DNA from: Lactiplantibacillus mudanjiangensis
GTDB taxonomy: Bacteria; Bacillota; Bacilli; Lactobacillales; Lactobacillaceae
Length of the DNA: 64,000 nucleotides
Assembly (NCBI RefSeq): GCF_005405385.1
Contig: NZ_BJDY01000004.1
Location: forward strand, 310,001 to 374,000
Direction of reading: 5' to 3'
The notes under the pieces are model-generated. The model searched no databases. It saw only the letters and a list, made by a program, of their open reading frames with translations, and was not told the origin of the DNA. Made by a program: the position numbers and the translations under genes. Positions 6,145-60,357 of the stretch are shown here, piece by piece; the stretch's first letter is position 1; each line of letters opens with the position of its first letter.

Positions 6145-6550
6145 TTGCCACCTACCGTTCGCCCACATTGAGCCGGAACGCTGTGGACGGACCGGCTCAG
6201 CCAAAGGGCGGTCTGAGCCGTCGTTTTGAACCACCAAAACCGTGTTTCAAAAGCGCCAATCTCTAAGCGATAAATCGCTAAGAGATTCCCACGGCTGGGC
6301 TCAATGTGGACTCACTCTCGGTTATAGTGGTGATCACAAACTTAATTAACAACCACAAGATAACCGGAGTCAACCAGTGATGGCGTCGGCCGTGCAAACA
6401 GCGTTAGTCCGGGTGGTTTTTCCGGACTTTACGATGTGGACGACTTTTGAGACTAGCGGTTTGGGCTAGGCTTAAAAGCGAGGTGGAAGCCCGATTTTGG
6501 GCTGGAACCGGTCCCCACAGCCGACAGAATCACTGGCTGACGGAGGTGGC
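6145..6550 (+). repeat. Folded intergenic repeat, copy A (complete core)
   Basis: Core from TTGCCACCTACC to GGAGGTGGC. The left module is closed by CCACATTGAGCC with GGCTCAATGTGG and carries an internal AATCTCT..AGAGATT hairpin. The right module has GTCGGC/GCCGAC arms and a GTCCGG/CCGGAC stem. It lies between the peptide/nox region and the FMN-binding gene. The outer terminal repeats seen in copies D and I are not evident here. Confidence 0.9.
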
Positions 6551-6604
6551 CCGGCTATCTTTCAACTTTTAGTGAAATCAGTAAAAGACGAAGGGGGCTT
6601 TAAG

Positions 6605-6943
6605 ATGGCAACGTATAAACCAGGGGCCTATCACATTGTTGGTGATGGTTACTTGCATGATTTACCATTGACGATTTCATTTACTGCGGATCAACTTGTG
6701 GGGATCGAAGTGGCGCCGGAAACCAAGTTGCATGGTTTGGAAAAAGAGGCGATTCCACAAGTGGTAACACGGTTATTAATGGCTCAAACCGTTGATATTG
6801 ATGCCGTCACAGGGGCTACAGTAACGAGTGATGGCTTAGTTGATGCGGTCACCGATGTGATTGATGCGATGCCAACGACTGATCCGGATGGCCCCGCCCA
6901 TAATCTGCTTGCCCAGTATCGGCATATTGCAACATCAAAATAA
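6605..6943 (+). CDS. Small FMN-binding-domain protein
   Basis: A 112-aa protein that is a single FMN_bind domain, like the covalent-FMN domains of fumarate reductases and NqrC/RnfG. The flavinylation motif DAVTGATVT is at residues 66-74, with T74 the expected site for ApbE-type flavin transferase. No signal peptide or membrane helix is seen, so it should be cytoplasmic. AGGGGGC lies six bases before ATG 6605; a longer frame from 6497 would start inside the repeat and is rejected. No reductase or ApbE partner is adjacent. Confidence 0.8.
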   Translation: MATYKPGAYHIVGDGYLHDLPLTISFTADQLVGIEVAPETKLHGLEKEAIPQVVTRLLMAQTVDIDAVTGATVTSDGLVDAVTDVIDAMPTTDPDGPAHNLLAQYRHIATSK

Positions 6944-6948
6944 GTTTT

Positions 6949-7000
6949 AAAACGTTGTGTTGACTTTGACCGATTAGGTGAAGCCGGCGCAACGTTTTTA
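6949..7000 (+). terminator. Probable terminator after the FMN-binding gene
   Basis: AAAACGTTG and CAACGTTTT are separated by a long loop of about 32 bases and end in TTTTT. It is weaker than others because of the loop. An extended -10 (TG at 7004-7005, TATAAT at 7007-7012) follows, probably for the next gene. Confidence 0.5.
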
Positions 7001-7048
7001 GTTTGTTATAATAAGACTAATGACATTAGATTAGTGGAGGTGGCGAAT

Positions 7049-8059
7049 TTGCAAGTCGTGGGTTCATTATTATCGACAATTGGTTGGCTTGGTTTGGGAC
7101 TCATTGGGAGTTTACTAGGTGCGACTTTGATTTATGAGTTTGGTCAGTGGTTGGGCAGTCGCCTGACTGGTGGCCGTGTAGTTAAAATTGCCGGATATCG
7201 GTATCAATTGGTTCATTTTGACGGCCATTGGCGTTGGCAACGGCCCATCCATTCCGAACCGCATTTGGTCATTATGCCGCCAAGTGAGTCGGAACGCTTC
7301 AATTATGCGGCGATTTGTTTTAGCGGGGGCTTGTTTAATTTGTTAGCGGTGATTTTTAGTTTGGTCACGGTACAACAATTGGCTCATGGGTTTGATTTGT
7401 GGTTGATGATTGCGATTATTTGGATTTGGGTGAATACGTTAAAAGCGCTTCAATTGTTACCTTTCGTGTGGCGTGGCCGGGCAACCGCGGCCTTAGATTT
7501 TAAAACGGCCCGGGCAATTCCGGCTGGCACAACTGCAGCTTACGTGACCATGTTAGCTACAGCAACGATGGTAGAAACGGGCAGTGTTGCGTCGTTACCA
7601 GTTGACGCGATTCAGTTAGCACCAGGCAGCACGAGTCAGAATTATTTAATTGTCCGTCAAGCTTGGGTCACGCTGCAATGGGGCCAGCAACATGGCTTAC
7701 CGTTAGCTGAGTTGTTAACCGGACTAACGCGATTAACGCATAGTTTTAATGAATTGCCACCAGCGGATATGGCCGTGTACTTAGATGCGACACTCTATTG
7801 GCATCTGCTGGCAGAACAGGCCGATGCGCAGTTCATTGCCTGGGTCCAGGACCATGAGCTGCAACGCTTACGGCAACGTTATACGCCATTGACCCAGTTT
7901 AAGTTACGAGCAGTGTATCAATGGCGCGTCAGCCATCAAGCACCAACTGCTTTAGACACGATTGAGCAAGGGTTAAAATGGGCAAATCGTGAACATAATA
8001 CGACCGAAGTGATGTGGTTAAAGGATTTACAAACACAAATTGAACAGGCGGAAGCTTAG
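7049..8059 (+). CDS. Membrane protein related to M50 (site-2) metallopeptidases, active site lost
   Basis: A 336-aa protein with at least four hydrophobic segments in its first 150 residues. The segment LIYEFGQWLGSRLTGGRVV aligns by eye with the HExxH helix of M50-like membrane proteases of Firmicutes (HELGH..FGxLTGYxxV). Here both zinc histidines are replaced, giving Y29-E30-F-G-Q33. The next family landmarks are kept: a MPP turn (VIMPPSESERF) and a GGxxxNLL helix (SGGLFNLLAV). The C-terminal 190 residues look soluble and helical. Start TTG 7049 is seven bases after GGAGGTGG. It is probably a non-catalytic relative; the partner is unknown. Confidence 0.65.
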   Translation: MQVVGSLLSTIGWLGLGLIGSLLGATLIYEFGQWLGSRLTGGRVVKIAGYRYQLVHFDGHWRWQRPIHSEPHLVIMPPSESERFNYAAICFSGGLFNLLAVIFSLVTVQQLAHGFDLWLMIAIIWIWVNTLKALQLLPFVWRGRATAALDFKTARAIPAGTTAAYVTMLATATMVETGSVASLPVDAIQLAPGSTSQNYLIVRQAWVTLQWGQQHGLPLAELLTGLTRLTHSFNELPPADMAVYLDATLYWHLLAEQADAQFIAWVQDHELQRLRQRYTPLTQFKLRAVYQWRVSHQAPTALDTIEQGLKWANREHNTTEVMWLKDLQTQIEQAEA

Positions 8060-8144
8060 ATTCTGGTAAAGATTTAGTCCAAGTCACGTTATCTCGCGTG
8101 GTGCGTGCTAAGCTAGCACTAGTTTAAGTGAGAAAAGGGTGGAA

Positions 8145-9260
8145 ATGTTGCAGCAACGAATGAAACGATCGTGGGGTTTGTGGCTAACGATTGTGGTTGT
8201 CATTGTTGGCTTGATTGGTGTTGGTTTAACACGAAAAAATGCCGCTTGGTATCAACAAACGGTGGCACAAGTGACCAAAGTACAAGCCATTCAACACACG
8301 GCGACGACTGATGAATTTCAAAATAAAGATGTTGATGCCAGCCAATGGGTGACAATCAAGGTTTTAAATCATCAGCATCAAGGTCGAACGTATCGGATCA
8401 AAAATAGTTATACGAAATCGGGAGCGATGGATCAGGCCTACCGGGTAGGCGATCAAGTCTTTGTTCGTATCCCGAAGAGTGCTAGTCGAGCAGTCACGAT
8501 TCAAGGCTTGAAACGCGATACCGCGTTGGCTTTTGTCGCTTGGTTGGCGTTAGCATTACTGTTATTGATTATGCGTTTTAGCGGCTTGATGGCGTTACTG
8601 AGTGTGACGTTAAATGCAGTCTTGTTTTATGGCGCGATTCAAATTGATTTGATGACTAATGGTGGCCATTTATATACGTTATTTGGTGGGTTAGCCATTA
8701 TTTTTGCGGTTTTAACGTTATGGCTGGTGCTTGGTTTTTCTCGGCAGATGCTGGTGACGTTAGGAGCAACGGTTGCTGGGACCGGATTAGCTGTCATTAT
8801 TAGTTTAATTGTTTTTGCGGTGACTAAAGAACGTGGTGTCACTTATGAAGCGATGCAATACGTGACCCAAGTACCGCGACCATTATTTCTAGTAGAAACC
8901 GTGCTGGGATCATTAGGTGCGGTGATGGATGAATCGACCGATATTGTGGCTTCACTGTTCCAATTGCGTGAAGAACGACCAGATGTGACGGCGAATCAAA
9001 TCTTTAAATCTGGTTTAACGATTGGTCGGTCAATCATGGGACCATTAATTAATGTGTTATTCCTGATCTTTATGGCCGATACCTTTGCGATGACGCTATT
9101 GTACTTACGGAATGGCAACAATTGGGGCTATACTTTCTCGATGAATATGTCGTTAGGGATGGTTCAAAGTTTGATTTCAGGGATTGGCATTGTTTTAGCA
9201 ATTCCAGTTGCCAGCTGGTTAGCTAGTCGGTTGATGCCTAGAAAGGCGGCGCAAGCATGA
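8145..9260 (+). CDS. YibE/F-family membrane protein (first of pair)
   Basis: A 371-aa integral membrane protein of the YibE/F family. There is one helix at residues 11-30, an extracytoplasmic segment of about 90 residues, then a run of about seven helices. Conserved-looking stretches include VLGSLGAVMDESTDIVAS and GRSIMGPLINVLFLIFMAD. It overlaps the next gene by four bases (ATGA), so the pair is translationally coupled. Start ATG 8145 is six bases after AAAGG. The family's function is not established. Confidence 0.85.
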   Translation: MLQQRMKRSWGLWLTIVVVIVGLIGVGLTRKNAAWYQQTVAQVTKVQAIQHTATTDEFQNKDVDASQWVTIKVLNHQHQGRTYRIKNSYTKSGAMDQAYRVGDQVFVRIPKSASRAVTIQGLKRDTALAFVAWLALALLLLIMRFSGLMALLSVTLNAVLFYGAIQIDLMTNGGHLYTLFGGLAIIFAVLTLWLVLGFSRQMLVTLGATVAGTGLAVIISLIVFAVTKERGVTYEAMQYVTQVPRPLFLVETVLGSLGAVMDESTDIVASLFQLREERPDVTANQIFKSGLTIGRSIMGPLINVLFLIFMADTFAMTLLYLRNGNNWGYTFSMNMSLGMVQSLISGIGIVLAIPVASWLASRLMPRKAAQA

Positions 9261-10021
9261 GTACCATTAGTGTTTTAGGGCTCGTCTTGTTTGCGCTGAT
9301 GACGTTAATCGGTGGTAAAACAGGCGCCACGGCCTTTTTGAGTTTGATTTTTAACTTTGGGTTATTGTTCTTAGCGGTTGTCTTGATTTCGTGGGGATTT
9401 CCGGCAATGGGCGTGTCACTCGTCATTGGGACGATTATTTTGGCCTTTACAATTTTCTTTGGTGAGGAAAACGAGTTGGCGGCTAAAACGGCCTATATCG
9501 CGGCTCTAATCGTGATGGTTGGTCTTATTTTAGTGATTTTTCCAGTGGAGCACTGGATTATGGCACAAGGCTTTAGTTTGGAAGATAGTGAAGACTTAGA
9601 AGGGATGTCTTTAACGATTGGGGTATCCTTTGTTGGGGTCGCTGTGACGGAAGCTATTCTTAGTACATTAGGTGCGATTGCCGAGGCCAGCATTGCAATT
9701 GCGGCGGGGCTCAGTGAGATTATTGCGCAACATCCTAAAGTCATGACCAAGCGACTTTATCTAGATGGTATTAGCATTGGCAAACAGATCATTGGAACGA
9801 CATTTAATACGTTGTTTTTTGGCTTCTTTGGTGGCTTTTTAGCACTATTTATTTGGTTCTCCGGTCTGCATTATTCGTTTGGCAGTGTGATCAATAATAA
9901 AATTTTTGTTGCTGAAGTTTTGATGGTTTTGTTTGCCTTAATTGGGGTTATTCTAACGGTGCCAGTGACGACTTGGGTCATGACGTTAACCCATCGGCAA
10001 TCAATGAAGCATCCTGATTGA
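9257..10021 (+). CDS. YibE/F-family membrane protein (second of pair)
   Basis: A 254-aa membrane protein, about seven helices, homologous to the C-terminal half of its upstream neighbour: LSTLGAIAEASIAIAAGLSEI matches LGSLGAVMDESTDIVAS, and GISIGKQIIGTTFNTLFFGF matches GLTIGRSIMGPLINVLFL. The two proteins probably form a heteromeric membrane complex, which is inference from the four-base overlap and homology. No enzyme motif is visible. Confidence 0.85.
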   Translation: MSTISVLGLVLFALMTLIGGKTGATAFLSLIFNFGLLFLAVVLISWGFPAMGVSLVIGTIILAFTIFFGEENELAAKTAYIAALIVMVGLILVIFPVEHWIMAQGFSLEDSEDLEGMSLTIGVSFVGVAVTEAILSTLGAIAEASIAIAAGLSEIIAQHPKVMTKRLYLDGISIGKQIIGTTFNTLFFGFFGGFLALFIWFSGLHYSFGSVINNKIFVAEVLMVLFALIGVILTVPVTTWVMTLTHRQSMKHPD

Positions 10022-10078
10022 CGCGGCTTAGTGAATCTTGCTAAGCTGGATAGGAAGTTAATTAGAGGAGGAACGTGC

Positions 10079-10642
10079 ATGCAAATTAGATTAGCGCAAC
10101 CAACTGATGCGGCGCAAATTGCGCCATTAGTGGGGATGATTTATCGAGATATGGAAATGCCAGTACTGGCTAAGGTAAGTGACGCCGATTTGTTAGCCAT
10201 GCTCACAACGTTGTATCAACGGCCAGAAAACTTAACGGATTTGGCGCAAACGTTAGTAGCGGTTGATGACGACCAAGTGTTAGGGGTTGCTTTTGGTCAT
10301 CCGGCAGCCAATGAAGTCGCGGTTAATCAGCTATTGCGAGCCGTTTCGGCGGCTCAATCCGGTTTTGACGCCCCTCTTGAACTTGGTGGCGAAACGCAAC
10401 CTGGCGAATGGTATTTAAGCATGCTAGCCGTCAGCCCCAAAGCGCAGGGGAAAGGGATTGGCAGTCAACTCCTACAAGCTTTACCAGCTGTAGCTAAGGA
10501 TCAAGGACTCAGTCGACTGAGTTTGAATGTTGATGATGGCAATCCTAAGGCGGCCAAGTTATATCATCGGCAAGGGTTTGAAACGGTCGGTAAATTGGTG
10601 ATTGGCGTGCATCCGTATGCCCATATGGTTAAAAAGGTATAG
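10079..10642 (+). CDS. GNAT-family N-acetyltransferase
   Basis: A 187-aa acetyltransferase of the GNAT fold. The acetyl-CoA loop is MLAVSPKAQGKGIGSQLLQAL (Q/RxxGxG/A motif), followed by NVDDGNPKAAKLYHRQGFETVG, the usual family ending. GAGGAGG lies before ATG 10079; the GTG start 48 bases upstream has no ribosome site. The substrate cannot be predicted. It is probably co-transcribed with the YibE/F pair (57-bp gap) and is ended by a clear terminator. Confidence 0.88.
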   Translation: MQIRLAQPTDAAQIAPLVGMIYRDMEMPVLAKVSDADLLAMLTTLYQRPENLTDLAQTLVAVDDDQVLGVAFGHPAANEVAVNQLLRAVSAAQSGFDAPLELGGETQPGEWYLSMLAVSPKAQGKGIGSQLLQALPAVAKDQGLSRLSLNVDDGNPKAAKLYHRQGFETVGKLVIGVHPYAHMVKKV

Positions 10643-10649
10643 TTTAATT

Positions 10650-10679
10650 AGTCTAAGTCACGAGGCTTAGACTTTTTTT
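10650..10679 (+). terminator. Terminator after GNAT gene
   Basis: AGTCTAAG and CTTAGACT with an eight-base loop, followed by seven T. Confidence 0.9.
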
Positions 10680-10736
10680 GTGACTGGATAACAGGTAAAA
10701 TTAAGATATCAGTTTAGTTAGGGAGGCACATGAACC

Positions 10737-11408: not shown

Positions 11409-11430
11409 TGTCTCGGTAATAGTGTTTTAT

Positions 11431-11831
11431 GCTACCTCCGCCAGCCAGTGATTATGCCGGCTGTGGGACCGGCTCCAGCCCAAAGTGCGGGCTTCCACCT
11501 CGCTTTTAAGCCTAGCCCAAACCGCTTGTCTCAAAAGGCGTCCACATCGTAAGCCCGGGAAAATCATCCGGACTAACGATGTTTTCACGGCCGGCGCCAT
11601 CACTGGTTGGCTCCGGCTATATCGTAAAATTAATCAATCTAGTAACTATCATAACCGAGAGTGAGCTCACATTGAGCCCAGCCGTGGGAATCTCTTAGCG
11701 ATTTATCGCTTAGAGATTGGCGCTTTTGAAACACGGGTTTGGTGGTTCAAAACGATGGTTCAGACCGCTTTTTGGCTGAACCGGTCCGCCCACAGCGTTC
11801 CGGCTCAATGTGGGCGAACGGTAGGTGGCAA
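11431..11831 (-). repeat. Folded intergenic repeat, copy B (complete core, inverted)
   Basis: Same element as copy A in the opposite orientation. It ends in GTAGGTGGCAAG and keeps both modules. The internal hairpin arms are AATCTCTTAGCG and CGCTTAGAGATT. It lies between convergent genes. Confidence 0.9.
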
Positions 11832-11857
11832 GTATAACTATTTTTAGTTTTAACAAG

Positions 11858-11899
11858 AAATGACACCAACCTGATCAGACGATCAAGTTGGTGTCATTT
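11858..11899 (-). terminator. Terminator of esterase operon
   Basis: AAATGACACCAACCTGATC and GATCAAGTTGGTGTCATTT form a stem next to T/A runs. It could also act on plus-strand transcripts leaving copy B. Confidence 0.88.
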
Positions 11900-11910
11900 T
11901 TGAGTGTTGC

Positions 11911-14330: not shown

Positions 14331-14534
14331 TAATAATCCCCCCAAACTGACTATTGTTAAAACAAAAATTATTTCCTTTCAACAATTAAATTATAGGATT
14401 AGTTGAGGCCATTTATCGACTATTGTGAATAGTTAGGATAGTGACTAATCTAGCAGAGTGTTCCCTAAACCGGGTTGCGACTGAGCATAGCCTAGGCAAA
14501 CAATTGATCGTGGGTTTTCGATCAGTTGTCTGCC

Positions 14535-14633
14535 GTAGCTAAGCGGAGGTCGCAGGTTCAGGGGACACGTTTCGACTTCAATCCTTGGTTAGACGTAGCT
14601 AAGCGGAGATCACAGGCTTGAGGAGCACGTTTC
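14535..14633. repeat. Two 39-bp imperfect direct repeats, 60-bp period
   Basis: Copies at 14535-14573 and 14595-14633 both begin GTAGCTAAGCGGAG and end CACGTTTC, with some internal differences. Their spacing is exactly 60 bp from start to start. The purpose is unknown. Confidence 0.75.
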
Positions 14634-24600: not shown

Positions 24601-24883
24601 TGTCTCCTCCGCCAGCCAGTGATTCTGCCGGCTGTGGGACCGGCTTCAGCCCAAAGTGCGGGCTTCCAACTCGCTTTTAAGCCTAGCCCAAACCGCTAGT
24701 CTTAAAAGTCGTCCACATCGTAAAGTCCGGTAAAATCATCCGGACTAACGATGTTTTCACGGCCGGCGCCATCACTGACTGGCTTCGGTTATATCGCAGA
24801 GACTAATTAATTAGTAATCACTATCATAACCGAGAGTGAGCCCACAGCGTTCCGGCTCAAGGTGAGCGAATGGCAGGTGGCAA
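24601..24883 (-). repeat. Folded intergenic repeat, copy C (internal deletion)
   Basis: The right module and linker are intact. Most of the left module is missing: GAGTGAGCCCACA is joined directly to GCGTTCCGGCTC. The junction falls on the short direct repeat CCCACA found at both ends of the missing part in complete copies. It starts three bases after the mdcG stop. Confidence 0.88.
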
Positions 24884-24955: not shown

Positions 24956-25750
24956 GTGAATTTTGTAACGAGTGATGGTGTTCGCTTGGCCTACCAGGAG
25001 GCAGGTCAACCTACTTGGCCGGCGGTAGTGTTTGTTAATGGGTTTGGCGGTTATCAGGCAGTTTGGACTGCACAAATCGATTATTTAGTGGCGTTAAAGG
25101 TTCGAGTGATCACGTATGATCATCGAAATAGCGGGGCGTCACAGCACACGACACGTGGCTTGACCATTAATCGGTTGGCTCAGGATTTAGTTGAATTATG
25201 TCATCAGTGTCAGGTTACGCGGCCATTACTAGTCGGCCATTCGATGGGCGCCAGCGTCACTTGGGCGGCCTTGGCGCAGCAGCAACTGGCAATCCGGGCT
25301 ATTTTGAGTGTGGATCAATCACCCAAAATGTTGAATACACCCACTTGGCCATACGGCTTTCAGCAAGTGACGACGGCAACTTTAGCTAATGCTTTAAACC
25401 AGCGCCCAACAACTTCGGAAACATTACATGGCTTAGTGCCAATCGTGGCACAACCGTTAGTGAACGCCAAAGCGGCGCATCCCTTTGACAAACAGGCTAA
25501 CCAACCATTGTTGCGGGACCATTATCAACAAGATTGGCGGTCAACTTTAGTGGCTAGCACAGTGCCAGTAACCATGATTCAGGCGCAACAGAGTCCGTAT
25601 TATCAATCAGGTTATGGTGAGTGGTTGCACCAACAAAATCCACATGTTACGGCTGTGACCTTACCAGATTGCGGGCATGATCCGATGGCCGAGATTCCGG
25701 TGGGGTTTAATCAAACTCTACGGCATTTTGTATTAAAAACTAAAGGTTGA
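24956..25750 (+). CDS. Alpha/beta-hydrolase
   Basis: A 264-aa soluble hydrolase. The nucleophile elbow is GHSMGASVT near residue 96, oxyanion region VNGFGGYQAVW, catalytic His in CGHDPM. Starting at GTG 24956 gives a ribosome site AGGGGG seven bases away; the longer ATG frame starts inside the terminator. The last four codons (K-T-K-G) and the TGA come from the end of repeat copy D, so the C-terminus was set by the repeat's arrival (inference). Substrate unknown. Confidence 0.85.
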   Translation: MNFVTSDGVRLAYQEAGQPTWPAVVFVNGFGGYQAVWTAQIDYLVALKVRVITYDHRNSGASQHTTRGLTINRLAQDLVELCHQCQVTRPLLVGHSMGASVTWAALAQQQLAIRAILSVDQSPKMLNTPTWPYGFQQVTTATLANALNQRPTTSETLHGLVPIVAQPLVNAKAAHPFDKQANQPLLRDHYQQDWRSTLVASTVPVTMIQAQQSPYYQSGYGEWLHQQNPHVTAVTLPDCGHDPMAEIPVGFNQTLRHFVLKTKG

Positions 25751-26288
25751 AAGCTAGGTTTTAGAAATAATCGTTGATATGATAAGCATTCATCGATCAA
25801 AACTAGTCCTACTTGCCACCTACCGTTCGCCCACATTGAGTCGGAACGCTGTGGGTGGACCGGCTCAGCCAAAAGGCGGTCTGAACCGTCGTTTTGAACC
25901 GCAAAATCCGCGTTTCAAGAACGCCAGTCTCTAAGCGATAAATCGCTAAGAGCCTCCCACGGCTGGGCTCAATGTGAGCTCACTCTCAGTTATAATAGTG
26001 ATCCCTAATTAACTAGCATCCGCATGATAACCGGAGTCGGCCAGTGATGGCGCCGGCCGTGATAATATCGTTAGTCCGGATGCTTTTTTTCCGGACTTTA
26101 CGATGTGGACGACTTTTGAGACTAGCGGTTTGGGCTAGGCTCAAAAGCGAGGTTTCAGCCCACACTTTGGCTGAAACCGGTCCCCACAGCTGGCAGAATC
26201 ACTGGCTGGCGTAGGTGGCAAATTTAACCCAACTTAAGTCAATGTTGCTAAGGTTTCGACTAATACATTTAACTTTCAACCTTTAGTT
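25738..26288 (+). repeat. Folded intergenic repeat, copy D (full 551-bp form with terminal inverted repeats)
   Basis: AACTAAAGGTTGAAAG at 25738-25753 and its exact complement at 26273-26288 bound the element. The core is 25813-26221 (TTGCCACCTACC..GTAGGTGGCAA). Flanks between core and ends are shared with copy I (for example AATAATCGTTGATATG on the left, AACTTAAGTCAATG on the right). It has a perfect GGTTTCAGCC/GGCTGAAACC stem in the right module. No open frame is inside. Confidence 0.93.
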
Positions 26289-32651: not shown

Positions 32652-33071
32652 CTAAAGCGTGATAACAATAATCATTGATTAATGGTCGATCGTTTTATCA
32701 TCTAACGTTCGCTCGTATTGAACCGGAATGCCGTTGGCGGAACGGTTTAACCCAAAAGTGATTTTGAACCATCAAACCCGTGTTTCAAAAGCTCTAAGCG
32801 ATAAATCGTTAAGAAAATTCCACGGCTGGACTCACTTTCGGTTATCATCGTGATCACTGATTCATTAATGACCGTAATCTAACCGGAGTCAGCCAGTGAT
32901 GGCGCCGACTGTGAAAACATCGTAAGTCCGGACGATTTTTCCGGGCTTACGATGTGGACGACTTTTGAGACTAGCGATTTTGGCTAGGCTCAAAAGCGAG
33001 GTGGAAGCCTGTACTTTGGCTGGAGCCGGTCCCACAGTCGGCAGAATCGCTGGCTGGCGTGGGTGGCTAAT
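32649..33071 (+). repeat. Folded intergenic repeat, copy E (diverged)
   Basis: The left end AACTAAAGCGTGATAAC resembles the terminal repeat of copies D and I. The core runs from about 32695 to 33071 with a decayed left module (part of the internal hairpin lost) and a well-kept right module, whose arms GCCGACTGTG and CACAGTCGGC differ from other copies but still pair. Confidence 0.85.
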
Positions 33072-38702: not shown

Positions 38703-38976
38703 TTGCTACCTGCCGTTCGCCCACTTTGAGCCGAAACGCTGTGGGCGGACCGGATCAGCCAAAAAGCGGTCTGAACCGTCGTTTTGAACCGCAAAATCCG
38801 CGTTTCAAAAGCGCCTAGCTCTAAGCGATAAATCGCTAAGAACTCCCCCGGCTGGGCTCAATGTGGACGACTTTTGAGACTAGTGGTTTTCTAGGCTTAA
38901 AAGCGAGACGGAAGCCCGTACTTTGGCTGCAGTCGGTCCCACAGCCGGCAGAATCATTGACTGGCGTAGGTGACTA
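38703..38976 (+). repeat. Folded intergenic repeat, copy F (internal deletion)
   Basis: The left module is kept. The linker and the first half of the right module are gone: CTCAATGTGGAC runs straight into GACTTTTGAGACTAG. The breakpoint is the direct repeat ATGTGGAC found twice in complete copies. Confidence 0.88.
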
Positions 38977-38993
38977 ATAGGTAGTAACAAAAA

Positions 38994-48718: not shown

Positions 48719-49122
48719 ATCACCTACGCCAGCCAGCGATTCTGCCGGCTGTGGGGACCGGTTCCAGCCAAAGTGCGGGCTTCCACCTCGCTTTTGAGCC
48801 TAGCCAAAACCACTAGTCTCAAAAGTCGTCCATATCGTAAAGTCCGGGGAAATCACCCGAACTAACGATATTTTCACGGCCGGCGCCATCACTGGCTGGC
48901 TCCGGTTATATCGCAAATGTTAAATAGTTTTGTGATCACAAATATAACCGAGAGTGAGCCCACATTGAGCCCAGCCGTGGGAGCTCTTAGCGATTTATCG
49001 CTTAGAGCTTGGCGTTTTTGAAACACGGGTTTTGTGGTTCAAAACGACGGTTCAGACCGCTCTGTGGCTGAACCGGTCCGCCCACAGTGTTTCGGCTCAA
49101 GGTGGGCGAACGGTAGGTGGCA
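48719..49122 (-). repeat. Folded intergenic repeat, copy G (complete core, inverted)
   Basis: Both modules are present. The internal hairpin has AGCTC/GAGCT base pairs, a version not seen elsewhere. Left-flank sequence ATTGACTTAAG and right-flank AACGATTATTGCTAA match flanks of D and I, so the original longer element extended to about 48699-49175. Confidence 0.9.
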
Positions 49123-49191
49123 AGTAAGGCCTATTTGGGGATTTATTAACGATTATTGCTAAGAAGTGGTTTCTAGATCAACAATAAGTGG

Positions 49192-49229: not shown

Positions 49230-49485
49230 TATCGAAAGAAGAGGACGCGACTAACAATAGTAGTTCAACCAAGACGGGTAATCGTCAGGGCGGTTGAATG
49301 AACGGGGCAGTCGCCGAAATCGCGCTAGCGTTTACCAGCTAGCCGGTTGGGCCTTGGTTGAATAAATCAAGGACTGTCGCAACTCAGGAGCGAGTTGCGG
49401 GGCGCTATCGACGATGAAATCAGCATTTTAGTAATCAATCTGATTAAAGTCTTTTTGCGCAGTTTGCAAAAAGGCTTTTTATTTT
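49230..49485 (+). ncRNA. Lysine riboswitch (L-box) with terminator
   Basis: Conserved L-box landmarks in order: AGAGGACGCG, AACAATAGTAGTT, GGGTAATCGTC, GGCAGTCGCCGAAAT, CGGTTGGGC, GGACTGTCGC, GCGGGGCGCTATC. The expression platform is a terminator, AGTCTTTTTGC against GCAAAAAGGCT then TTTTTATTTT (49448-49485). Lysine binding should stop transcription before lysP. Confidence 0.93.
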
Positions 49486-49553: not shown

Positions 49554-51002
49554 ATGGCAGAAGAACAAACACATGAAGTGAAGCGGTCACTACAGACGCG
49601 CCATCTCTCCATGATTGCATTAGGTGGTAGTATCGGAACCGGGTTGTTCGTGGCATCTGGTTCTGCAATTTCAACCGCAGGGCCTGGTGGGGCTTTGCTG
49701 GCTTACGTCGGTATCGGGATTATGGTTTATTTCTTAATGACCAGTCTTGGTGAAATGGCCACGTACTTACCGGTTTCTGGATCATTTTCAACGTATTCCA
49801 CGCGTTTTGTCGATCCGGCTTTAGGATTTGCGATGGGCTGGAATTATTGGTTTAACTGGGCAATTACTTTAGCGGTCGATATCAGTACGGCGGCAATTGT
49901 TATGCAATTTTGGTTGCCGTCAGTTCCCGGCTGGGTCTTTAGTCTGATTGCTTTAATCTTAATCTTTATGATTAATGCCTTGTCAGTCCGATCATTCGGG
50001 GAAACTGAGTATTGGTTGTCTTTGATTAAAGTTGTGACGGTGCTCATCTTTTTAGTTGTCGGGGTCTTAACAATTTTCGGGATTATGGGTGGTCATGCGA
50101 CTGGTCTTAGTAATTTCACCACTGGTAAGGCACCATTTGTTGGTGGAATTCCAACAATCTTAAGCGTCTTCGTGGTTGCCGGGTTCTCATTTCAAGGGAC
50201 CGAGTTAATCGGGATCACCGCGGGTGAATCAGCGACACCGGAAAAGAGTATTCCAGCAGCGATTAAACAAGTTTTTTGGCGGATTCTCTTATTTTATATC
50301 TTGGCCATTTTCGTGATCGCAGCGATCATTCCTTATACGTCGAAAGACTTACTAGGGTCATCAGCTAGCGATATTGCAATTAGTCCCTTTACGTTAGTCT
50401 TCAAACGGGCTGGTTTAGCGGCAGCGGCTAGTGTGATGAATGCGGTGATCTTAACGTCTGTCTTATCAGCGGCCAATTCAGGGATGTATGCTTCGACACG
50501 GATGCTTTATTCCTTATCCTTACAAGGCTATGCACCAAAGACGTTTGGTCGTGTTAACCGTCGTGGGATTCCAATTATGGCGTTACTTGGCACAACGTTT
50601 ATCGGCTTGTTAACTTTCTTATCGAGCATGTTTGGGGATCGAATTTATATTTTCTTGGTTTCAGCCAGTGGGTTAACTGGGTTCATCGCTTGGCTTGGTA
50701 TTGCGATCTCACATCTACGTTTCCGACAAGCTTTTGTCAAGCAAGGTCACGATTTGAGTGAGTTGCGATACCATGCTAAATGGTTCCCATTCGGGCCAAT
50801 TTTTGCATTCTTACTCTGTGTGATTGTGATTATTGGGCAAGATTTGCATTCTTTTGCCACTTGGGATTGGCAAGCAATCGGCGTGACTTACATGAGTATC
50901 CCATTGTTTATTGTGCTATTTGTCTATTATAAGGTTCGACATCATACGAAGTTGATTCCGTTAGATAAAGTTGATTTATCGAAAAAACATTTAGATGATT
51001 GA
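49554..51002 (+). CDS. lysP: Lysine-specific amino acid permease
   Basis: A 482-aa APC-superfamily transporter with 12 helices. SMIALGGSIGTGLFVASGSAISTAGPGGALLAY and GTELIGITAGESATPEKSIP are AAT-family signatures. The lysine riboswitch in the leader makes lysine the substrate. GGAGG lies before ATG. The TGA stop is one base before decayed terminal-repeat sequence of copy H. Confidence 0.93.
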   Translation: MAEEQTHEVKRSLQTRHLSMIALGGSIGTGLFVASGSAISTAGPGGALLAYVGIGIMVYFLMTSLGEMATYLPVSGSFSTYSTRFVDPALGFAMGWNYWFNWAITLAVDISTAAIVMQFWLPSVPGWVFSLIALILIFMINALSVRSFGETEYWLSLIKVVTVLIFLVVGVLTIFGIMGGHATGLSNFTTGKAPFVGGIPTILSVFVVAGFSFQGTELIGITAGESATPEKSIPAAIKQVFWRILLFYILAIFVIAAIIPYTSKDLLGSSASDIAISPFTLVFKRAGLAAAASVMNAVILTSVLSAANSGMYASTRMLYSLSLQGYAPKTFGRVNRRGIPIMALLGTTFIGLLTFLSSMFGDRIYIFLVSASGLTGFIAWLGIAISHLRFRQAFVKQGHDLSELRYHAKWFPFGPIFAFLLCVIVIIGQDLHSFATWDWQAIGVTYMSIPLFIVLFVYYKVRHHTKLIPLDKVDLSKKHLDD

Positions 51003-51499
51003 TTAGCTAAATGTTGAGAGCTAATTATGGTGGACTGGATTGGATAAAGTAGTCACCTACGTCAGCCAGTGATTCTGCCGGCTGTGGGACCGGCTCCAGC
51101 CAAAATGCGGGCTTCCACCTCGCTTTTGAGTCTAGCCAAACCCGCTAGTCTTAAAAGTCGTCCACATCGTAAAGTCCGGCAAAACCGTCCGGACTAACGA
51201 TGTTTTCACGGCCGGCGCCATCACTGGCTGACTCCGGTTATATTAATCAATCTAGTAATCACTAATATAACCGAGAGTGAGTCCACATTGAGCCCAGCCG
51301 TGGGAGGCTCTTAGCGATTTATCGCTTAGAGCCTGGCGCTTTTGAAACACGGGCTTGGTGGTTCAAAACGATGGTTCAGACCGCTGTTTGGCTGAACCGG
51401 TCCACCCACAGCGTTCCGGCTCAATGTGGGCGAACGGTAGGTGGTAAGTCCAGTCACTTTTAATTAGTACTAAAAAGTAATTTTCAACCCTTAGTAATT
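51003..51499 (-). repeat. Folded intergenic repeat, copy H (complete core, decayed ends, inverted)
   Basis: Core about 51051-51446. The internal hairpin is perfectly paired with AGG/CCT at its base. Outer ends resemble the 16-bp terminal repeat: TAGCTAAATGTTGAGAG at 51004 and TTTTCAACCCTTAGT at 51481. It follows lysP and lies in the same orientation as copy G, 2.3 kb away. Confidence 0.9.
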
Positions 51500-55274: not shown

Positions 55275-55290
55275 TTCTAAATTAGGTATG

Positions 55291-55323
55291 AAGGCGTTAG
55301 TCAGCGATGGCTAACGCCTTTTC
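55291..55323 (+). terminator. serS terminator
   Basis: AAGGCGTTAG and CTAACGCCTT around a ten-base loop, then T. Confidence 0.88.
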
Positions 55324-55339
55324 TGTTGGTTGCGCGTAA

Positions 55340-55440
55340 AATAGCCACCGAAGTCGGCCATCACTGACTTCGGTTAGTTTGTGGATACAAATTGTTCTAG
55401 CGATATAGCCGCAGAGAGTGAGGCCAGGGTGAGAACTGGT
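55340..55440 (-). repeat. Folded intergenic repeat, copy J (remnant)
   Basis: CGGCCATCACTGACTTCGGTTA..ATAGCCGCAGAGAGTGAGGCCA corresponds to the middle of an inverted copy (linker and neighbouring arms); both outer parts are missing. It is degraded and only recognised by comparison with C, G and H. Confidence 0.6.
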
Positions 55441-55655
55441 GATTAATGATAGGATATGAGTATAATTGCATATCTTAATCAATCGACTAACTAGTCGTCA
55501 GTGCGTGGATTTAGTGGGTAATAGGAAACACAAGTAAGGATTAATGGCTAATTTAATCGGCGGTGATGCAAAGACTAGAATGCTGTCAAATCAGGCATTG
55601 ATTACTGTTACAATGAAAGTATCTGAATTAATTCAACTTTTTTTCAAAAAAAGGT
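55441..55655. other. Intergenic spacer between copy J and the tRNA promoters
   Basis: No gene is seen. There are small palindromes (CGACTA-AC-TAGTCG at 55484-55497; GATATG..CATATC nearby). Confidence 0.5.
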
Positions 55656-55683
55656 TTGCTTAATGCGATTCCAGTGCTATAAT
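55656..55683 (+). promoter_or_regulatory. Upstream tRNA-cluster promoter
   Basis: TTGCTT, 16-bp spacer, TATAAT, with an extended TGC before -10. Confidence 0.7.
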
Positions 55684-55754
55684 ATTTCTTGTCGGAAAAA
55701 TAGACGATTTCATTCATTGAAAAAGAATATTTATCCAAAAAAATTAAAAATATG

Positions 55755-55783
55755 TTGACAATTATTCATCACCATGATAAAGT
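55755..55783 (+). promoter_or_regulatory. Downstream tRNA-cluster promoter
   Basis: TTGACA, 17-bp spacer, TAAAGT. With the upstream one it gives a tandem pair. Confidence 0.75.
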
Positions 55784-55851
55784 TAAATAGTTGTCAAAAG
55801 GCATAACGAGTAAGGCTGTTAGCGACAACAGGCATGCATGATTAAGATCAT

Positions 55852-55933
55852 GCGGGTGTGGCGGAACTGGCAGACGCGCTAGATTTAGGTTCTAGTGTCT
55901 TACGACGTGGGGGTTCGAGTCCCTTCACCCGCA
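55852..55933 (+). tRNA. tRNA-Leu (TAG)
   Basis: GCGGGTG acceptor arm with its complement, long variable arm, TTCGAGT loop; anticodon loop TTTAGGT gives TAG. No CCA is encoded. Confidence 0.97.
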
Positions 55934-55940
55934 CTTACAT

Positions 55941-56013
55941 GCCGACTTAGCTCAGTTGGCAGAGCATCTCACTAGTAATGAGGAGGTCGGAGGTTCGAAT
56001 CCTCTAGTCGGCA
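55941..56013 (+). tRNA. tRNA-Thr (AGT)
   Basis: Cloverleaf complete; anticodon loop CTAGTAA gives AGT, expected to be read as IGU after deamination. Confidence 0.93.
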
Positions 56014-56035
56014 TTTACAATTGAATAATACATTT

Positions 56036-56107
56036 GCGGAAGTAGTTCAGTGGTAGAACATCACCTTGCCATGGTGGGGGTCGCGGGTTCGAATCCCGTC
56101 TTCCGCT
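56036..56107 (+). tRNA. tRNA-Gly (GCC)
   Basis: Acceptor GCGGAAG/CTTCCGC with U at 73; anticodon loop TTGCCAT. Confidence 0.97.
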
Positions 56108-56115
56108 TTTAATTT

Positions 56116-56201
56116 GCCGGGGTGGCGGAATTGGCAGACGCACAGGACTTAAAATCCTGCGGTTAGTGATAACCGTACCGGTTCGATCCCGGTCCTCGGC
56201 A
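56116..56201 (+). tRNA. tRNA-Leu (TAA)
   Basis: Acceptor GCCGGGG/CCTCGGC, long variable arm, anticodon loop CTTAAAA. Confidence 0.97.
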
Positions 56202-56210
56202 TTTTAATTT

Positions 56211-56284
56211 GCACCCATAGCGCAACTGGATAGAGTGTCTGACTACGAATCAGAAGGTTGTAGGTTCGACTCCTACTGGGTGCA
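56211..56284 (+). tRNA. tRNA-Arg (ACG)
   Basis: Acceptor GCACCCA/TGGGTGC, anticodon loop CTACGAA. Confidence 0.97.
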
Positions 56285-56292
56285 TTAAGTAT

Positions 56293-56366
56293 CGGGAAAT
56301 AGCTCAGCTTGGTAGAGCACCTGGTTTGGGACCAGGGGGTCGCAGGTTCGAATCCTGTTTTCCCGA
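56293..56366 (+). tRNA. tRNA-Pro (TGG)
   Basis: Acceptor CGGGAAA/TTTCCCG, anticodon loop TTTGGGA. Confidence 0.97.
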
Positions 56367-56378
56367 TCGATTACGAAC

Positions 56379-56406
56379 AGTCTTAGTTATTATAACTAGG
56401 GCTTTT
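56379..56406 (+). terminator. Terminator after the six-tRNA group
   Basis: AGTTAT and ATAACT around a weak stem, then GCTTTTT. It separates the last tRNA from the first six. Confidence 0.65.
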
Positions 56407-56421
56407 TGTTTAAATTTTTAA

Positions 56422-56495
56422 CGGGAAGTAGCTCAGCTTGGTAGAGCACTACGTTCGGGACGTAGGGGTCGCAGGTTCAAATCCTGTTTTCCCGA
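56422..56495 (+). tRNA. tRNA-Pro (CGG)
   Basis: Very similar to the previous tRNA-Pro but with anticodon loop TTCGGGA (CGG); its acceptor has one G-T pair. It probably arose by duplication. No clear promoter of its own is seen. Confidence 0.95.
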
Positions 56496-56512
56496 TCGAT
56501 AGTAACCGTTGA

Positions 56513-56538
56513 CGCGATCATTGTGATCGCGTTTTTTT
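56513..56538 (+). terminator. Terminator of the tRNA cluster
   Basis: CGCGATCA and TGATCGCG around a three-base loop, then seven T. Confidence 0.92.
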
Positions 56539-56552
56539 GTGCCGTTTGCTAA

Positions 56553-56652
56553 GTGGCCGATAAAATTAACTCGAATAAAGTCAGCCAATAAGCCATTGCT
56601 TGGTTCAATCAATTGAAAGCCAGCTATGAGCGTGCTATGCTGGAACAACCGT
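56553..56652 (+). other. Possible coding remnant before ctsR
   Basis: One frame reads VADKINSNKVSQ, a stop, then AIAWFNQLKASYERAMLEQP and a stop. The second part looks protein-like but there is no start or ribosome site. It may be the end of a decayed gene. Low confidence. Confidence 0.25.
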
Positions 56653-56690
56653 AAGGAAGCGGGTTATCGCTAGTCCTTGGGTGAAATTCT

Positions 56691-56738
56691 TTGCATTTTC
56701 GAATTATCCTCGTATAATGAAAGTCAATATTAGTCAAA
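56691..56738 (+). promoter_or_regulatory. ctsR-clpC promoter with CtsR operator
   Basis: TTGCAT (56691), 16-bp spacer, TATAAT (56713-56718). A tandem heptad AGTCAAT-ATT-AGTCAAA at 56722-56738 matches the CtsR box (RGTCAAA-N3-RGTCAAA) with one difference, so the repressor should sit just after the -10. Confidence 0.85.
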
Positions 56739-56760
56739 GATAATGTAAAGGGTGATACAG

Positions 56761-57228
56761 ATGCAAAGTCAAAATATCTCCGATATCATCGAAAAATATT
56801 TAAAAAGTATTTTGGCGGACGCTGAACACGTTGAAATTCGTCGTTCTGAAATTGCGGATCTCTTCAATGTGGTGCCTTCCCAAATTAACTATGTGATTAA
56901 AACCCGGTTTACCATTCAAAATGGTTACTTAGTTGAAAGTAAACGTGGCGGTGGGGGTTATATTCGGATTGAAAAAGTTAATTTGCTAGATGACGCTGAC
57001 GTGCTGGACACCCTCATTCAAGTGATTGGGGATGCCATTACCCAGCGGGATGCTTACGCCGTTGTTCAGAGTCTTTATGAAGATGGAGTGTTAAACCGTC
57101 GAGAAGCACAATTAATTTTAGTTGCTACGGATCGAAATACCCTCGGGGTCGACGATCATGATTTAGAAAACAGCTTGCGCGCGCGAATCATTGTTGGCAT
57201 TTTAAATCATTTACGCTACGAAAGCTAA
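56761..57228 (+). CDS. ctsR: Class III heat-shock repressor CtsR
   Basis: A 155-aa repressor of clp genes. The winged helix (HVEIRRSEIADLFNVVPSQINYVIKTRFT) and the glycine-rich wing RGGGGYIRI, the heat-sensing loop, are present. ATG 56761 is nine bases after AAAGGG; GTG 56752 overlaps that site. It is followed by clpC in the usual order, though mcsA and mcsB are absent, as usual in lactobacilli. Confidence 0.95.
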   Translation: MQSQNISDIIEKYLKSILADAEHVEIRRSEIADLFNVVPSQINYVIKTRFTIQNGYLVESKRGGGGYIRIEKVNLLDDADVLDTLIQVIGDAITQRDAYAVVQSLYEDGVLNRREAQLILVATDRNTLGVDDHDLENSLRARIIVGILNHLRYES

Positions 57229-57247
57229 AGAAAGCGAGGAATCGCAC

Positions 57248-59755
57248 ATGGATAACTTATTTACCCCGAGTGCCAAAAGTGTCTTAGTTTTGGCCCAAGA
57301 GCAGGCCAAGTACTTTAAACATCAAGCAGTTGGCACGGAACATTTATTATTAGCCCTCGCCATTGAGAAAAATGGGATTGCCAATAAGGTTTTACAGCAA
57401 TACGCCGTGACTGAAGACGATATTCGCGAAGAAATCGAACGATTTACTGGTTATGGGACGTTGAGTAATGTTGGCAAGGATACGTATTTGCCATATTCAC
57501 CAAAGGCCAAAGAAATTTTATCAATCGCGGGTGATGAAGCCAAACGGTTAGGTGCTAACAAGATTGGTACTGAACATTTATTATTGGCAATGCTATCTGA
57601 TGAAAGCATTTTGTCCTCGCGGATTTTAATGAATTTAAACTTAGATTTGGGTCAAACTCGCAAAGTGGTTTTACGTAAACTTGGGGTGAGTGACGCGATG
57701 AATAAACGCAATAAAGGCACGCAACCAAATCGGGCTAAATCTGCTGAAGGCACGCCAACGCTAGATTCATTGGCGCGGGATTTGACGCAACTAGCCAGTG
57801 AAAAAGCAATGGATCCAGTGGTTGGTCGTTCTAAAGAAGTGAAACGGGTCATTCAGATCTTGTCACGTCGGACGAAGAACAATCCTGTCTTGATCGGTGA
57901 ACCAGGTGTCGGTAAAACGGCGATTGCTGAAGGGCTTGCCCAAAAGATTGTTGCCGGTGATGTGCCAAGCGATATGGCCGACAAACGTTTGATGATGTTA
58001 GATATGGGATCATTAGTTGCTGGGACCAAGTATCGTGGTGAATTCGAAGATCGTTTGAAGAAAGTGATCGATGAAATTTACAATGATGGTCATGTCATTC
58101 TCTTTATTGATGAATTGCATACGTTGATTGGTGCCGGTGGTGCTGAAGGGGCGATTGATGCGTCAAACATCTTGAAGCCAGCTTTAGCCCGTGGTGAACT
58201 CCAAACCATTGGGGCAACCACGTTAAATGAGTACCAAAAGTATATTGAATCTGACGCAGCTTTAGAACGACGCTTTGCGACGGTAATGGTTGAAGAACCA
58301 ACGCCAGATGAAGCGGTAGAAATTTTAACTGGTTTACGGCCTCGTTATGAAGCACATCATCATGTGACGATTACTGACGAAGCAGTTGAACAGGCGGTAA
58401 TCTTGTCGAATCGCTACATTAGTGATCGATTCTTACCAGATAAAGCCATTGATTTAATGGATGAAGCGGGTGCTAAGGTTCGTATTGATCAAATGGATCA
58501 ACCTAACAAGTTGTCTAAGAATATGGACAAGTTAGCAACGTTACGCCAGGAAAAAGAAACGGCGATTGAAGATCAAGATTTCGAACAGGCGGCTGAAATT
58601 CGTCAACAAGAAATGCGTTTGAAGCAACGTTTAGATAAGTTGCAAGCTGCACATGATGCCGAAGCTGAAGCGGGCGATGCGCCACAATACAGTTTACAGG
58701 TGACGGGCGAAGATATTGCCCAAGTCGTGGCTGAATGGACGGGTGTGCCACTAACCCAGTTACAAAAATCTGAAAGTGATCGCTTAGTGAACTTAGAAAA
58801 GATTTTACATGAACGGGTTGTTGGTCAACCTGAAGCCGTTTCGGCGGTTTCACGGGCGATTCGACGGGCGCGTAGTGGCTTGAAAGATCCAAGTCGGCCA
58901 ATCGGGTCATTCATGTTCCTTGGCCCAACTGGGGTCGGGAAGACTGAATTAGCTAAGGCGTTAGCTGAAGCGATGTTTGGGTCTGAAGACAACATGATTC
59001 GGATTGATATGTCTGAATACATGGAACGCTACTCAACGAGTCGCTTGATCGGATCGGCACCTGGTTATGTTGGTTACGACGAAGGTGGCCAATTGACTGA
59101 AAAGGTTCGGCAAAAACCTTACTCAGTCGTTCTCTTCGATGAAGTTGAAAAAGCGCATCCAGATGTCTTTAACATCTTGTTACAAGTCTTAGATGATGGT
59201 TACTTAACAGATTCCAAGGGTCGCAAAGTCGACTTCCGGAATACGATTTTAATCATGACGTCTAACCTGGGTGCAACGACCTTACGTGATGAAAAATCGG
59301 TTGGGTTCGGTGCTACTGATCAAGCAAACAATTACCAAGCTGTTTCGGCAACCATTCATGCGGAATTGCGTAAAGCGTTCCGTCCTGAATTCTTGAACCG
59401 AATTGATGAAACCATTGTCTTCCATTCATTAGATAAGGAAGAATTACATGCGATTGTCAAATTGATGGCGAAAGAAATTGTTGATCGGGTTGCTGAGCAA
59501 GGTATCAAGGTTAAGATTACACCGGCCGCCATTGATGTGGTTGCTAAAGCCGGTTTTGACCCTGAATATGGGGCACGACCAATCCGTCGAGCCTTGCAGA
59601 CAGAAGTTGAAGATCGCTTGAGCGAATCCTTGTTAACTGGTGAGATCAAAGTTGACGATCAAGTCACGATTGGTGCCAGCAAGGGTGTCATTACCATTAA
59701 TGTTAAGAATCAACCAGAAGCTTCGGATGGCCGTTCGACGGTTTCATCGAAGTAA
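57248..59755 (+). CDS. clpC: ClpC AAA+ ATPase
   Basis: An 835-aa unfoldase that feeds ClpP. Two Clp-N repeats (about 1-145), first Walker A GEPGVGKT near 217, UVR/M-domain about 430-465 ([21 protein letters not shown]), second Walker A GPTGVGKT near 559, and the ClpP-binding tripeptide VGF in KSVGFGA near 685. It is in the CtsR operon. GAGGAATCGC lies before ATG. A terminator follows and the repeat I starts 50 bp on. Confidence 0.97.
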
Positions 59756-59766
59756 TTGAAATAACG

Positions 59767-59801
59767 AAGCACTTGGGGATGATCCTCAAGTGCTTTTTTT
59801 T
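59767..59801 (+). terminator. clpC terminator
   Basis: AGCACTTGGGGAT and ATCCTCAAGTGCT (one mismatch), then eight T. It lies just before copy I. Confidence 0.92.
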
Positions 59802-59806
59802 GTTAA

Positions 59807-60357
59807 AACCTAAAGGCTGAAAGCAACCTTTTTAGCAATAATCGTTGATATGATAAGCATCCATCGATCAAAACTAGTCATACTTGTCACCTACCGTTCG
59901 CCCACATTGAGCCGGAACGCTGTGGGCGGACCGGTTCAGCTAAAAAGCGGTCTGAACCGTCGTTTTGAGTCACTCAAATCGTGTCTCAAAAGCGCCGTTC
60001 TCTAAGCGATAAATCGCTAAGAGAACCCCACGGCTGGGCTCAATGTGTGCTCACTCTCGGTTATAATAGTGATTGCTAATTGATTAGTCTCTGCGATACA
60101 ACCGGAGCCAGTCAGTGATGGCGCCGGCCGTGAAAATATCGTTAGTCCGGGTGATTTCCCCGGACTTTATGATATGGACGACTTTTGAGACTAGCGGTTT
60201 GGGCTAGGCTTAAAAGCGAGGTGGCAGCCCGTACTTTGGCTGGAACCGGTCCCCACAGCCGGCAGAATCGCTGGCTGGCGTAGGTGACAAATTTAATCCA
60301 ACTTAAGTCAATGTAGGTAAGATTTCGACCACTATATTTAACTTTCAACCTTTAGTT
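59807..60357 (+). repeat. Folded intergenic repeat, copy I (full 551-bp form with terminal inverted repeats)
   Basis: Left end ACCTAAAGGCTGAAAG and right end CTTTCAACCTTTAGTT (60342-60357) match the terminal repeats of copy D with small changes. The core is 59884-60290. Flank segments on both sides are shared with D. The internal hairpin has GTT/AAC at its base. It lies between clpC and the TetR gene. Confidence 0.93.

What the first reader, a model, noticed from the sequence alone, without database searches (positions are those of the whole stretch)
6145..60357. Ten copies of a large folded intergenic repeat in 64 kb
About 400-bp elements recur at 6145, 11431, 24601, 25738, 32649, 38703, 48719, 51003, 55340 (remnant) and 59807, in both orientations, always between genes. 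Each core starts TTGCCACCTACC and ends GTAGGTGGCAA, so the ends are inverted repeats, and each has two modules that could fold into separate multi-stem structures joined by CGGTTAT/ATAACCG. No open frame is conserved. This density is high for a non-coding element, and I know of no named family that fits. It could be a mobile element, a structured RNA, a nucleoid or gene-boundary element, or some mix.
Basis: partly seen in the sequence, partly recalled or inferred. Interest (0 to 1): 0.9.

Follow-up and report, generated by a model that had tools for sequence, protein, structure and literature searches.

The report
Structured mini-transposons crowding lactobacilli genomes
The repeats are small gene-free transposable elements, found at about 140 or more places in this lactic-acid bacterium's genome, and most carry two mirror-image stretches that fold into the same four-stem shape, a shape kept in several genera of lactobacilli for reasons not yet known.

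Summary
The repeats are real: 9 homologous copies in the window. The claimed tenth (55340) is not one. Full-length copies are ~545 nt, bounded by 14-bp terminal inverted repeats (TIRs; CTAAAGGTTGAAAG / CTTTCAACCTTTAG, 132 genome hits versus 0 for a reversed control). Exact 7-9 bp target duplications flank 21 of 29 TIR-bounded elements. Near-identical TIRs bound insertion sequences of 1460-1567 bp in five related genomes, three with an intact IS4-family transposase; ends, size and duplications suggest the ISPepr1 subgroup. A transposase search found none in the window's genome. So the element is a MITE, now probably immobile.

The unusual part is the interior: two ~185-nt inverted modules, each folding as P1{P1a[P2,P3],P4}. 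A covariance model finds the module in 99 of 397 Lactobacillaceae genomes (10 of 40 genera); in a sample of the order only one further genome matched. No Rfam family fits. Covariation is very strong (48 of 52 pairs change on both sides), yet G·U and A·C cells are about equally common (250 and 213; 25 and 0 in a small tRNA control). That favours a fold constrained or maintained as DNA over an RNA, though a modest leading-strand excess remains unexplained. My searches found no description in print.

The parts
6145..6572 (+). Copy 1: module A 6162-6304 (+), module B 6380-6539 (-), right TIR 6559-6572 (1 mismatch); no left TIR found at <=3 mismatches
11431..11831 (-). Copy 2: modules 11442-11600 (+) and 11672-11814 (-); no TIR found
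24601..24883 (-). Copy 3: one full module 24613-24772 (+), the other half truncated; no TIR found
25740..26286 (+). Copy 4, full length: TIR 25740-25753, module A 25830-25972 (+), module B 26047-26208 (-), TIR 26273-26286, 7-bp target duplication TTAAAAA
32649..33075 (+). Copy 5: module B 32899-33056 (-); module A degraded (weak hit 32760-32792); no TIR found
38703..38980 (+). Copy 6: central deletion, modules 38720-38866 (+) and 38842-38963 (-) overlap; no TIR found
48719..49123 (-). Copy 7: modules 48730-48889 (+) and 48965-49106 (-); no TIR found
51007..51494 (-). Copy 8: TIRs 51007-51020 and 51481-51494 (2 mismatches each), modules 51063-51221 (+) and 51288-51430 (-); no exact target duplication
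59810..60355 (+). Copy 9, full length: TIR 59810-59823 (1 mismatch), module A 59901-60043 (+), module B 60118-60277 (-), TIR 60342-60355, 7-bp target duplication TTAAAAC
55340..55650 (.). Claimed remnant: NOT part of the family

Best explanation
Each repeat is a non-autonomous transposable element (MITE). Inferred mechanism: an IS4-family transposase of ISPepr1 type binds the 14-bp TIRs, cuts the element out and inserts it into AT-rich DNA at gene ends, duplicating mostly 7-8 bp of target. Shown here: TIRs, target duplications, and autonomous relatives with near-identical TIRs in sister species. Not shown: transposition itself; no such transposase was found in the window's genome, so the copies are probably fossils. 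The interior of intact copies is a pair of inverted, homologous ~185-nt modules, each held to the same four-helix fold in several genera. Because pairing is kept without clear preference for either strand, I infer that the fold acts as, or is maintained as, DNA (a cruciform, or a hairpin in single-stranded DNA at replication forks). That some loop bases are read by a protein is the most speculative step.
For: TIRs: 132 hits at <=1 mismatch versus 0 for the reversed pattern. Target duplications: 21 of 29 TIR-bounded elements have an exact 7, 8 or 9-bp direct repeat (9, 10 and 2); exact 8-bp matches are 0.12% of crossed flank pairs (no crossed control for 7 and 9 bp). Empty-site reading at copy 4 gives an ORF ending ...VLKNRY instead of ...VLKTKG. 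Partners: five TIR-bounded elements of 1460-1567 bp in sister genomes, TIR mismatches 0-1 per end, two (L197, L201) with 7-bp direct repeats; open frames of 459-466 aa in three, matching NCBIfam NF049925 IS4 transposase at 435-481 bits, cut-off 250. Ends (7 of 8 consensus positions), size and duplication length fit ISPepr1 in Table 1 of PMC2266710 (passages seen). Beside one conserved gene, 18 of 20 relatives have no module within ~1.5 kb of the site of copy 4. Context: 27 of 28 elements lie downstream of at least one neighbouring gene, 1 in a divergent gap; 22 of 28 have a T5 or A5 run within 40 nt versus 27% of control positions. Fold: covariation score 0.541 versus 0.164 shuffled and <=0.112 slid. 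DNA level: G·U share of G·U plus A·C 0.54, bootstrap 0.49-0.59.
Against: No transposition was observed. The autonomous IS loci carry no module (0 hits in 7 loci), so the transposase does not explain the module. Of 9 window copies only 3 keep both TIRs. Outside Lactiplantibacillus the TIR is rare near modules: Companilactobacillus 1 and 2 of 36 (up, down), g16/Levilactobacillus 1 and 0 of 47; one Companilactobacillus-group genome has 7 and 9 of 40 at <=3 mismatches, controls 2 and 1. Within g16, homology mostly stops at the module or module pair (510 aligned pairs, median 167 nt), so the module may also move or be homogenised on its own. Three T·G columns (120 G·U cells) hint that the motif strand is the folded one. 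In one complete genome 94 of 150 listed modules lie on the strand with positive GC skew. Unpaired columns are as a class no better conserved than paired ones (mean 0.66 and 0.67), and the P2 loop was part of the search pattern that supplied the model, so its conservation is partly by selection.
Confidence: 0.68

Rival explanations
1. The module is a functional structured RNA (small RNA, 3'-UTR element or bidirectional terminator) carried by a MITE. The convergent pair would ensure that transcription entering from either side meets a sense module first.
For: Very strong covariation; RNA folding z -7.0 for one module; position right after stop codons and terminators; the outer modules of convergent pairs are in sense on entry; 94 of 150 modules on the GC-skew leading strand of one genome.
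Against: G·U and A·C about equally common (250 and 213; 130 and 206 without three columns), versus 25 and 0 in 15 tRNAs. In one genome, single modules between tandem genes are sense 8 and antisense 9 times. No Rfam relative. No transcription data were available.
Confidence: 0.18
2. No function: the hairpins are kept perfect by template-switch correction of quasi-palindromes at replication forks. The covariation is a mutational by-product.
For: Strand symmetry and few wobble intermediates; many pairs show all four Watson-Crick types; unpaired columns as a class are no better conserved than paired ones (0.66 and 0.67).
Against: Seven of 49 unpaired columns are kept at 0.9 or more, five of them outside the pattern used for the search, and the order of helices persists in several genera, which correction of stems does not explain.
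Confidence: 0.3
3. REP/BIME-like repeats moved by a Y1 (HUH/RAYT) transposase acting on single-stranded hairpins.
For: Inverted pairs of folded repeats at gene ends in hundreds of copies; module alone repeated in some genera.
Against: Y1 transposases (PF01797) are present in both genomes of the genus without a module (G018, G019) and not found in module-rich G001, G004, G009, G011 and G020. The own elements have TIRs and target duplications, which REPs lack (recalled).
Confidence: 0.03

Closest known systems
IS4 family, ISPepr1 subgroup insertion sequences (PMC2266710, passages seen)
   Same: Terminal bases (7 of 8 stated positions), 7-8 bp duplications in 19 of the 21 exact cases, AT-rich sites; partners with an IS4 transposase, four of five within 1500-1600 bp
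   Different: The element itself has no transposase and carries folded modules that the IS loci lack; no transposase tree was made, so the subgroup rests on ends and size
Bacterial MITEs as reviewed in PMC10969869 (passages seen)
   Same: Short, TIR-bounded, duplicating, many copies, intergenic
   Different: Interior of two inverted four-helix modules shared across genera; a word search of the review finds neither 'Lactobacill' nor 'IS4'
REP/BIME elements (features recalled)
   Same: Inverted pairs of folded repeats at gene ends, hundreds of copies
   Different: ~185 nt with four helices, no Y1 association, TIRs and duplications present
BOX, RUP, Correia elements (recalled; BOX and RUP are named in a passage of PMC10969869)
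   Same: Modular, mobile, able to fold
   Different: No sequence relation tested; different hosts and architecture

Membership tests
MITE | Terminal inverted repeats | tested here: met
   132 hits versus 0 control; 3 of 9 window copies keep both TIRs
MITE | Target-site duplication | tested here: met
   21 of 29 exact 7-9 bp
MITE | No transposase gene inside | tested here: met
   no ORF >=90 aa wholly inside any window copy
MITE | TIRs shared with an autonomous IS | tested here: met
   in sister species; no match in own genome to a 131-aa piece of the transposase
MITE | Moves when transposase is supplied | not testable with these tools
   -
IS4 / ISPepr1-type ends | Ends YT-AA-YTT---A | tested here: met
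   CTAAAGGTTGAAA fits 7 of 8 stated positions; position 7 is G, not Y
IS4 / ISPepr1-type ends | Direct repeats of 7-8 bp | tested here: met
   19 of 29 exact at 7 or 8 bp, 2 at 9, 8 inexact
IS4 / ISPepr1-type ends | IS4 transposase in the partner IS | tested here: met
   YREK-like stretch Y-GR-R-WQI-E-..K read, motif spacing recalled
IS4 / ISPepr1-type ends | Transposase groups with the ISPepr1 subgroup | not tested
   no tree was built
Structured RNA family | G·U favoured over A·C in helices | tested here: not met
   small and biased tRNA control
Structured RNA family | Match to a described family | tested here: not met
Structured RNA family | Transcribed as a discrete RNA | not testable with these tools
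REP/BIME | Co-occurrence with Y1/RAYT transposase | tested here: not met

The most novel reading that the evidence does not exclude
The ~185-nt module is an old, independent structured-DNA element of lactobacilli. Its four-helix fold is read by a dedicated protein as single-stranded or cruciform DNA; it spreads as solo modules or convergent pairs in several genera, with a lean towards one replication strand, and was captured between ISPepr1-type TIRs in Lactiplantibacillus, where it multiplied to hundreds of copies.
Probability: 0.22. Interest if true: 0.85.

Novelty: new variant of a known kind. Interest (0 to 1): 0.6.

Why it matters
It is an abundant repeat (283 motif hits in 3.29 Mb; the nine copies cover about 6% of the window by approximate extents), it occurs in 10 of 40 sampled genera of a family important in food, and I found no description of it. 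It also offers a natural case in which strong covariation, usually read as a sign of a functional RNA, comes with a strand-symmetric signature that points to DNA. That bears on how covariation-based RNA discovery should be filtered.

Tried and rejected
Rfam at gathering score and at E <= 1: nothing relevant. Plasmid and phage collections: no match. RAYT/Y1 driver: rejected by distribution in the genus. Module as part of the autonomous IS: no hit in 7 loci. Sense orientation with genes: no bias for 27 single modules of one genome; one of them, L306, has a divergent neighbour about 1.2 kb away. Empty sites in relatives: genes are ~76-81% identical and I did not align the intergenic regions; only presence or absence was read, at one site. 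Literature: eight keyword searches listed no paper whose title or shown abstract describes this element; PMC2267715, PMC10969869 and PMC2266710 were seen only as passages. Rows dropped: one search scored only elements with both TIRs at <=2 mismatches in 36 sources (29); one search used 28 of those (window copy 51007 left out); one search scored 37 of 40 loci; A2 kept the best 150 of 164 matches (140 distinct). The tRNA control is small and biased, because ARAGORN selects paired stems.
Full report
OBSERVATION. Repeat finding and alignment show nine homologous copies in both orientations. The tenth place, 55340, has no model hit, and its best matches to other copies are 19 and 32 nt at E 0.034. 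The end motif (<= 2 mismatches) has 13 window matches, 10 in the elements; shuffles give a mean of 4.25 and a maximum of 10. The P2-loop pattern has 283 matches against 7 for the reversed pattern, the highest count in the 21 genomes of the genus searched. The model lists 150 modules, its cap, at 140 separate places.

TRUE ENDS. The motif TTGCCACCTACC is internal. Intact copies end in CTAAAGGTTGAAAG and its complement, about 545 nt apart. This 14-mer has 132 genome hits at <=1 mismatch against 0 for the reversed control. Of 29 distinct elements with both TIRs, 21 have exact direct repeats of 7 (9), 8 (10) or 9 (2) bp; for 8 bp, crossed flank pairs match exactly in 0.12% of cases (no crossed control for 7 and 9 bp). 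Shorter elements of 201-439 nt share the TIRs. At copy 4 the TIR supplies the stop codon of an alpha/beta-hydrolase ORF; the joined flanks would end in NRY instead of TKG.

THE PARTNER. In five sister genomes TIRs with 0-1 mismatches per end bound elements of 1460, 1509, 1559, 1565 and 1567 bp; two of them show 7-bp direct repeats. Three have open frames of 459-466 aa; the one in G017 is broken and was searched in pieces. The three proteins match NCBIfam IS4_4 (NF049925) at 435-481 bits and Pfam DDE domains. Table 1 of PMC2266710 (passages seen) gives ISPepr1 ends YT-AA-YTT---A, 1500-1600 bp, repeats of 7-8 bp and, in the text, AT-rich targets; seven of eight end positions fit. No transposase tree was made. 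The transposase search, with a 131-aa piece, finds 6 of 21 genomes and not the window's own.

THE MODULES. Intact elements hold two inverted copies of one module. The fold is P1 closing P1a, which encloses P2 and P3, followed by P4. P2 ends in CAGCC-AAAGTRC-GG-T-CTG, with a bulged T, and P3 in a loop like CCGATAAACCACG. Both modules of copy 9 fold far better than shuffles as DNA (z -4.8 and -6.8), and module B also as RNA (z -7.0). Model R1 (51 sequences, 153 positions, 52 pairs) finds 16 modules in the window, modules in 19 of 21 genus genomes, in 99 of 397 sampled Lactobacillaceae genomes and 10 of 40 genera, and in 10 of 295 sampled genomes of the order, nine of this family and one of another (how many of the 295 lie outside the family is not shown). 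Pairs are convergent: 16 of 18 neighbours within 1.2 kb in two genomes, the other two being tandem and about 1 kb apart.

COVARIATION AND STRAND. On 140 distinct modules, 87.7% of cells form standard pairs, 48 of 52 pairs change on both sides, and the covariation score is 0.541 against 0.164 (shuffled) and at most 0.112 (slid). The alignment was fitted to the model, which leans towards the structure. G·U cells number 250 and A·C cells 213; without three T·G-rich columns, 130 and 206. Pairs with more G·U, more A·C and ties number 21, 24 and 7. Fifteen tRNAs from the same loci have 25 G·U and 0 A·C, a small and biased control. Seven of 49 unpaired and 26 of 104 paired columns are conserved at 0.9 or more; the class means are 0.66 and 0.67, so loops as a class do not stand out, and the P2 loop was part of the pattern that supplied the model. 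My inference is that pairing matters about equally for both strands, as expected for DNA or for palindrome correction.

CONTEXT. For 28 TIR-bounded elements, neighbouring genes are convergent in 14, tandem in 13 and divergent in 1. A T5 or A5 run lies within 40 nt in 22 of 28, versus 27% of 9000 (non-independent) intergenic positions; AT is 73% against 62%. In one complete genome (G328), 27 of 40 sampled modules had no detected partner, and their orientation to called neighbouring genes is even (++ 8, -- 9, +- 6, -+ 4). Yet in that genome 94 of 150 listed modules lie on the strand with positive GC skew, a moderate excess that I cannot explain. Of 20 relatives, one (G017) has a weak module match (37.7 bits) about 120 nt past the orthologue of the gene beside copy 4, not compared further; another (G005) has one about 750 nt away; 18 have none.

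AGAINST MY READING. The TIR (<=2 mismatches) is found near modules in the group of mainly Lactiplantibacillus loci (11 of 51 on each side) and in the window (7 of 16), controls 0-1, but hardly in Companilactobacillus and g16/Levilactobacillus, although one Companilactobacillus-group genome shows decayed TIRs. In g16, copies share mostly ~170-200 or ~390 nt, not TIR-bounded units. So the MITE explains the window's copies well, but not by itself the module's spread across genera. The identity of g16 was not verified; g4 is Companilactobacillus by a shared contig.

VERDICT. A MITE family with IS4/ISPepr1-type ends and a folded interior shared across genera, undescribed as far as I searched. The transposon part is well supported; the reason for the fold is open, with a DNA-level role or upkeep more likely than an RNA.

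Noticed in passing
window 49231-49415: Lysine riboswitch upstream of an amino acid permease gene (49554-51002); the pair is bracketed by two elements (48719 and 51007).
   Followed up: no
window 14517-14633: Two 57-nt direct repeats 60 nt apart, 74% identical, outside the element family; by eye a similar phrase stands near an element of another species (L102).
   Followed up: no
G328 (complete Companilactobacillus-group genome): Module orientation follows GC skew: 94 of 150 listed modules on the strand with positive skew.
   Followed up: partly
G000:C3:13162-13315 and C3:504464-504617: The two best model scores in the own genome (122.7 and 108.4 bits) stand above the window copies; perhaps a second subfamily, not compared.
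   Followed up: no
L069, L074, L081, L083: Short forms (201-439 nt) with the same TIRs, by eye internal deletions of the 545-nt element.
   Followed up: partly
L050: The IS carries a GC-rich hairpin just inside its left TIR, possibly shielding the transposase from read-through (interpretation recalled).
   Followed up: no
G420:C5:98803-98941: The only module match outside Lactobacillaceae among the 295 sampled genomes of the order (E 1.4e-8), perhaps a transfer.
   Followed up: no
window 55852-56495: Array of seven tRNA genes beside the place wrongly called a remnant.
   Followed up: no
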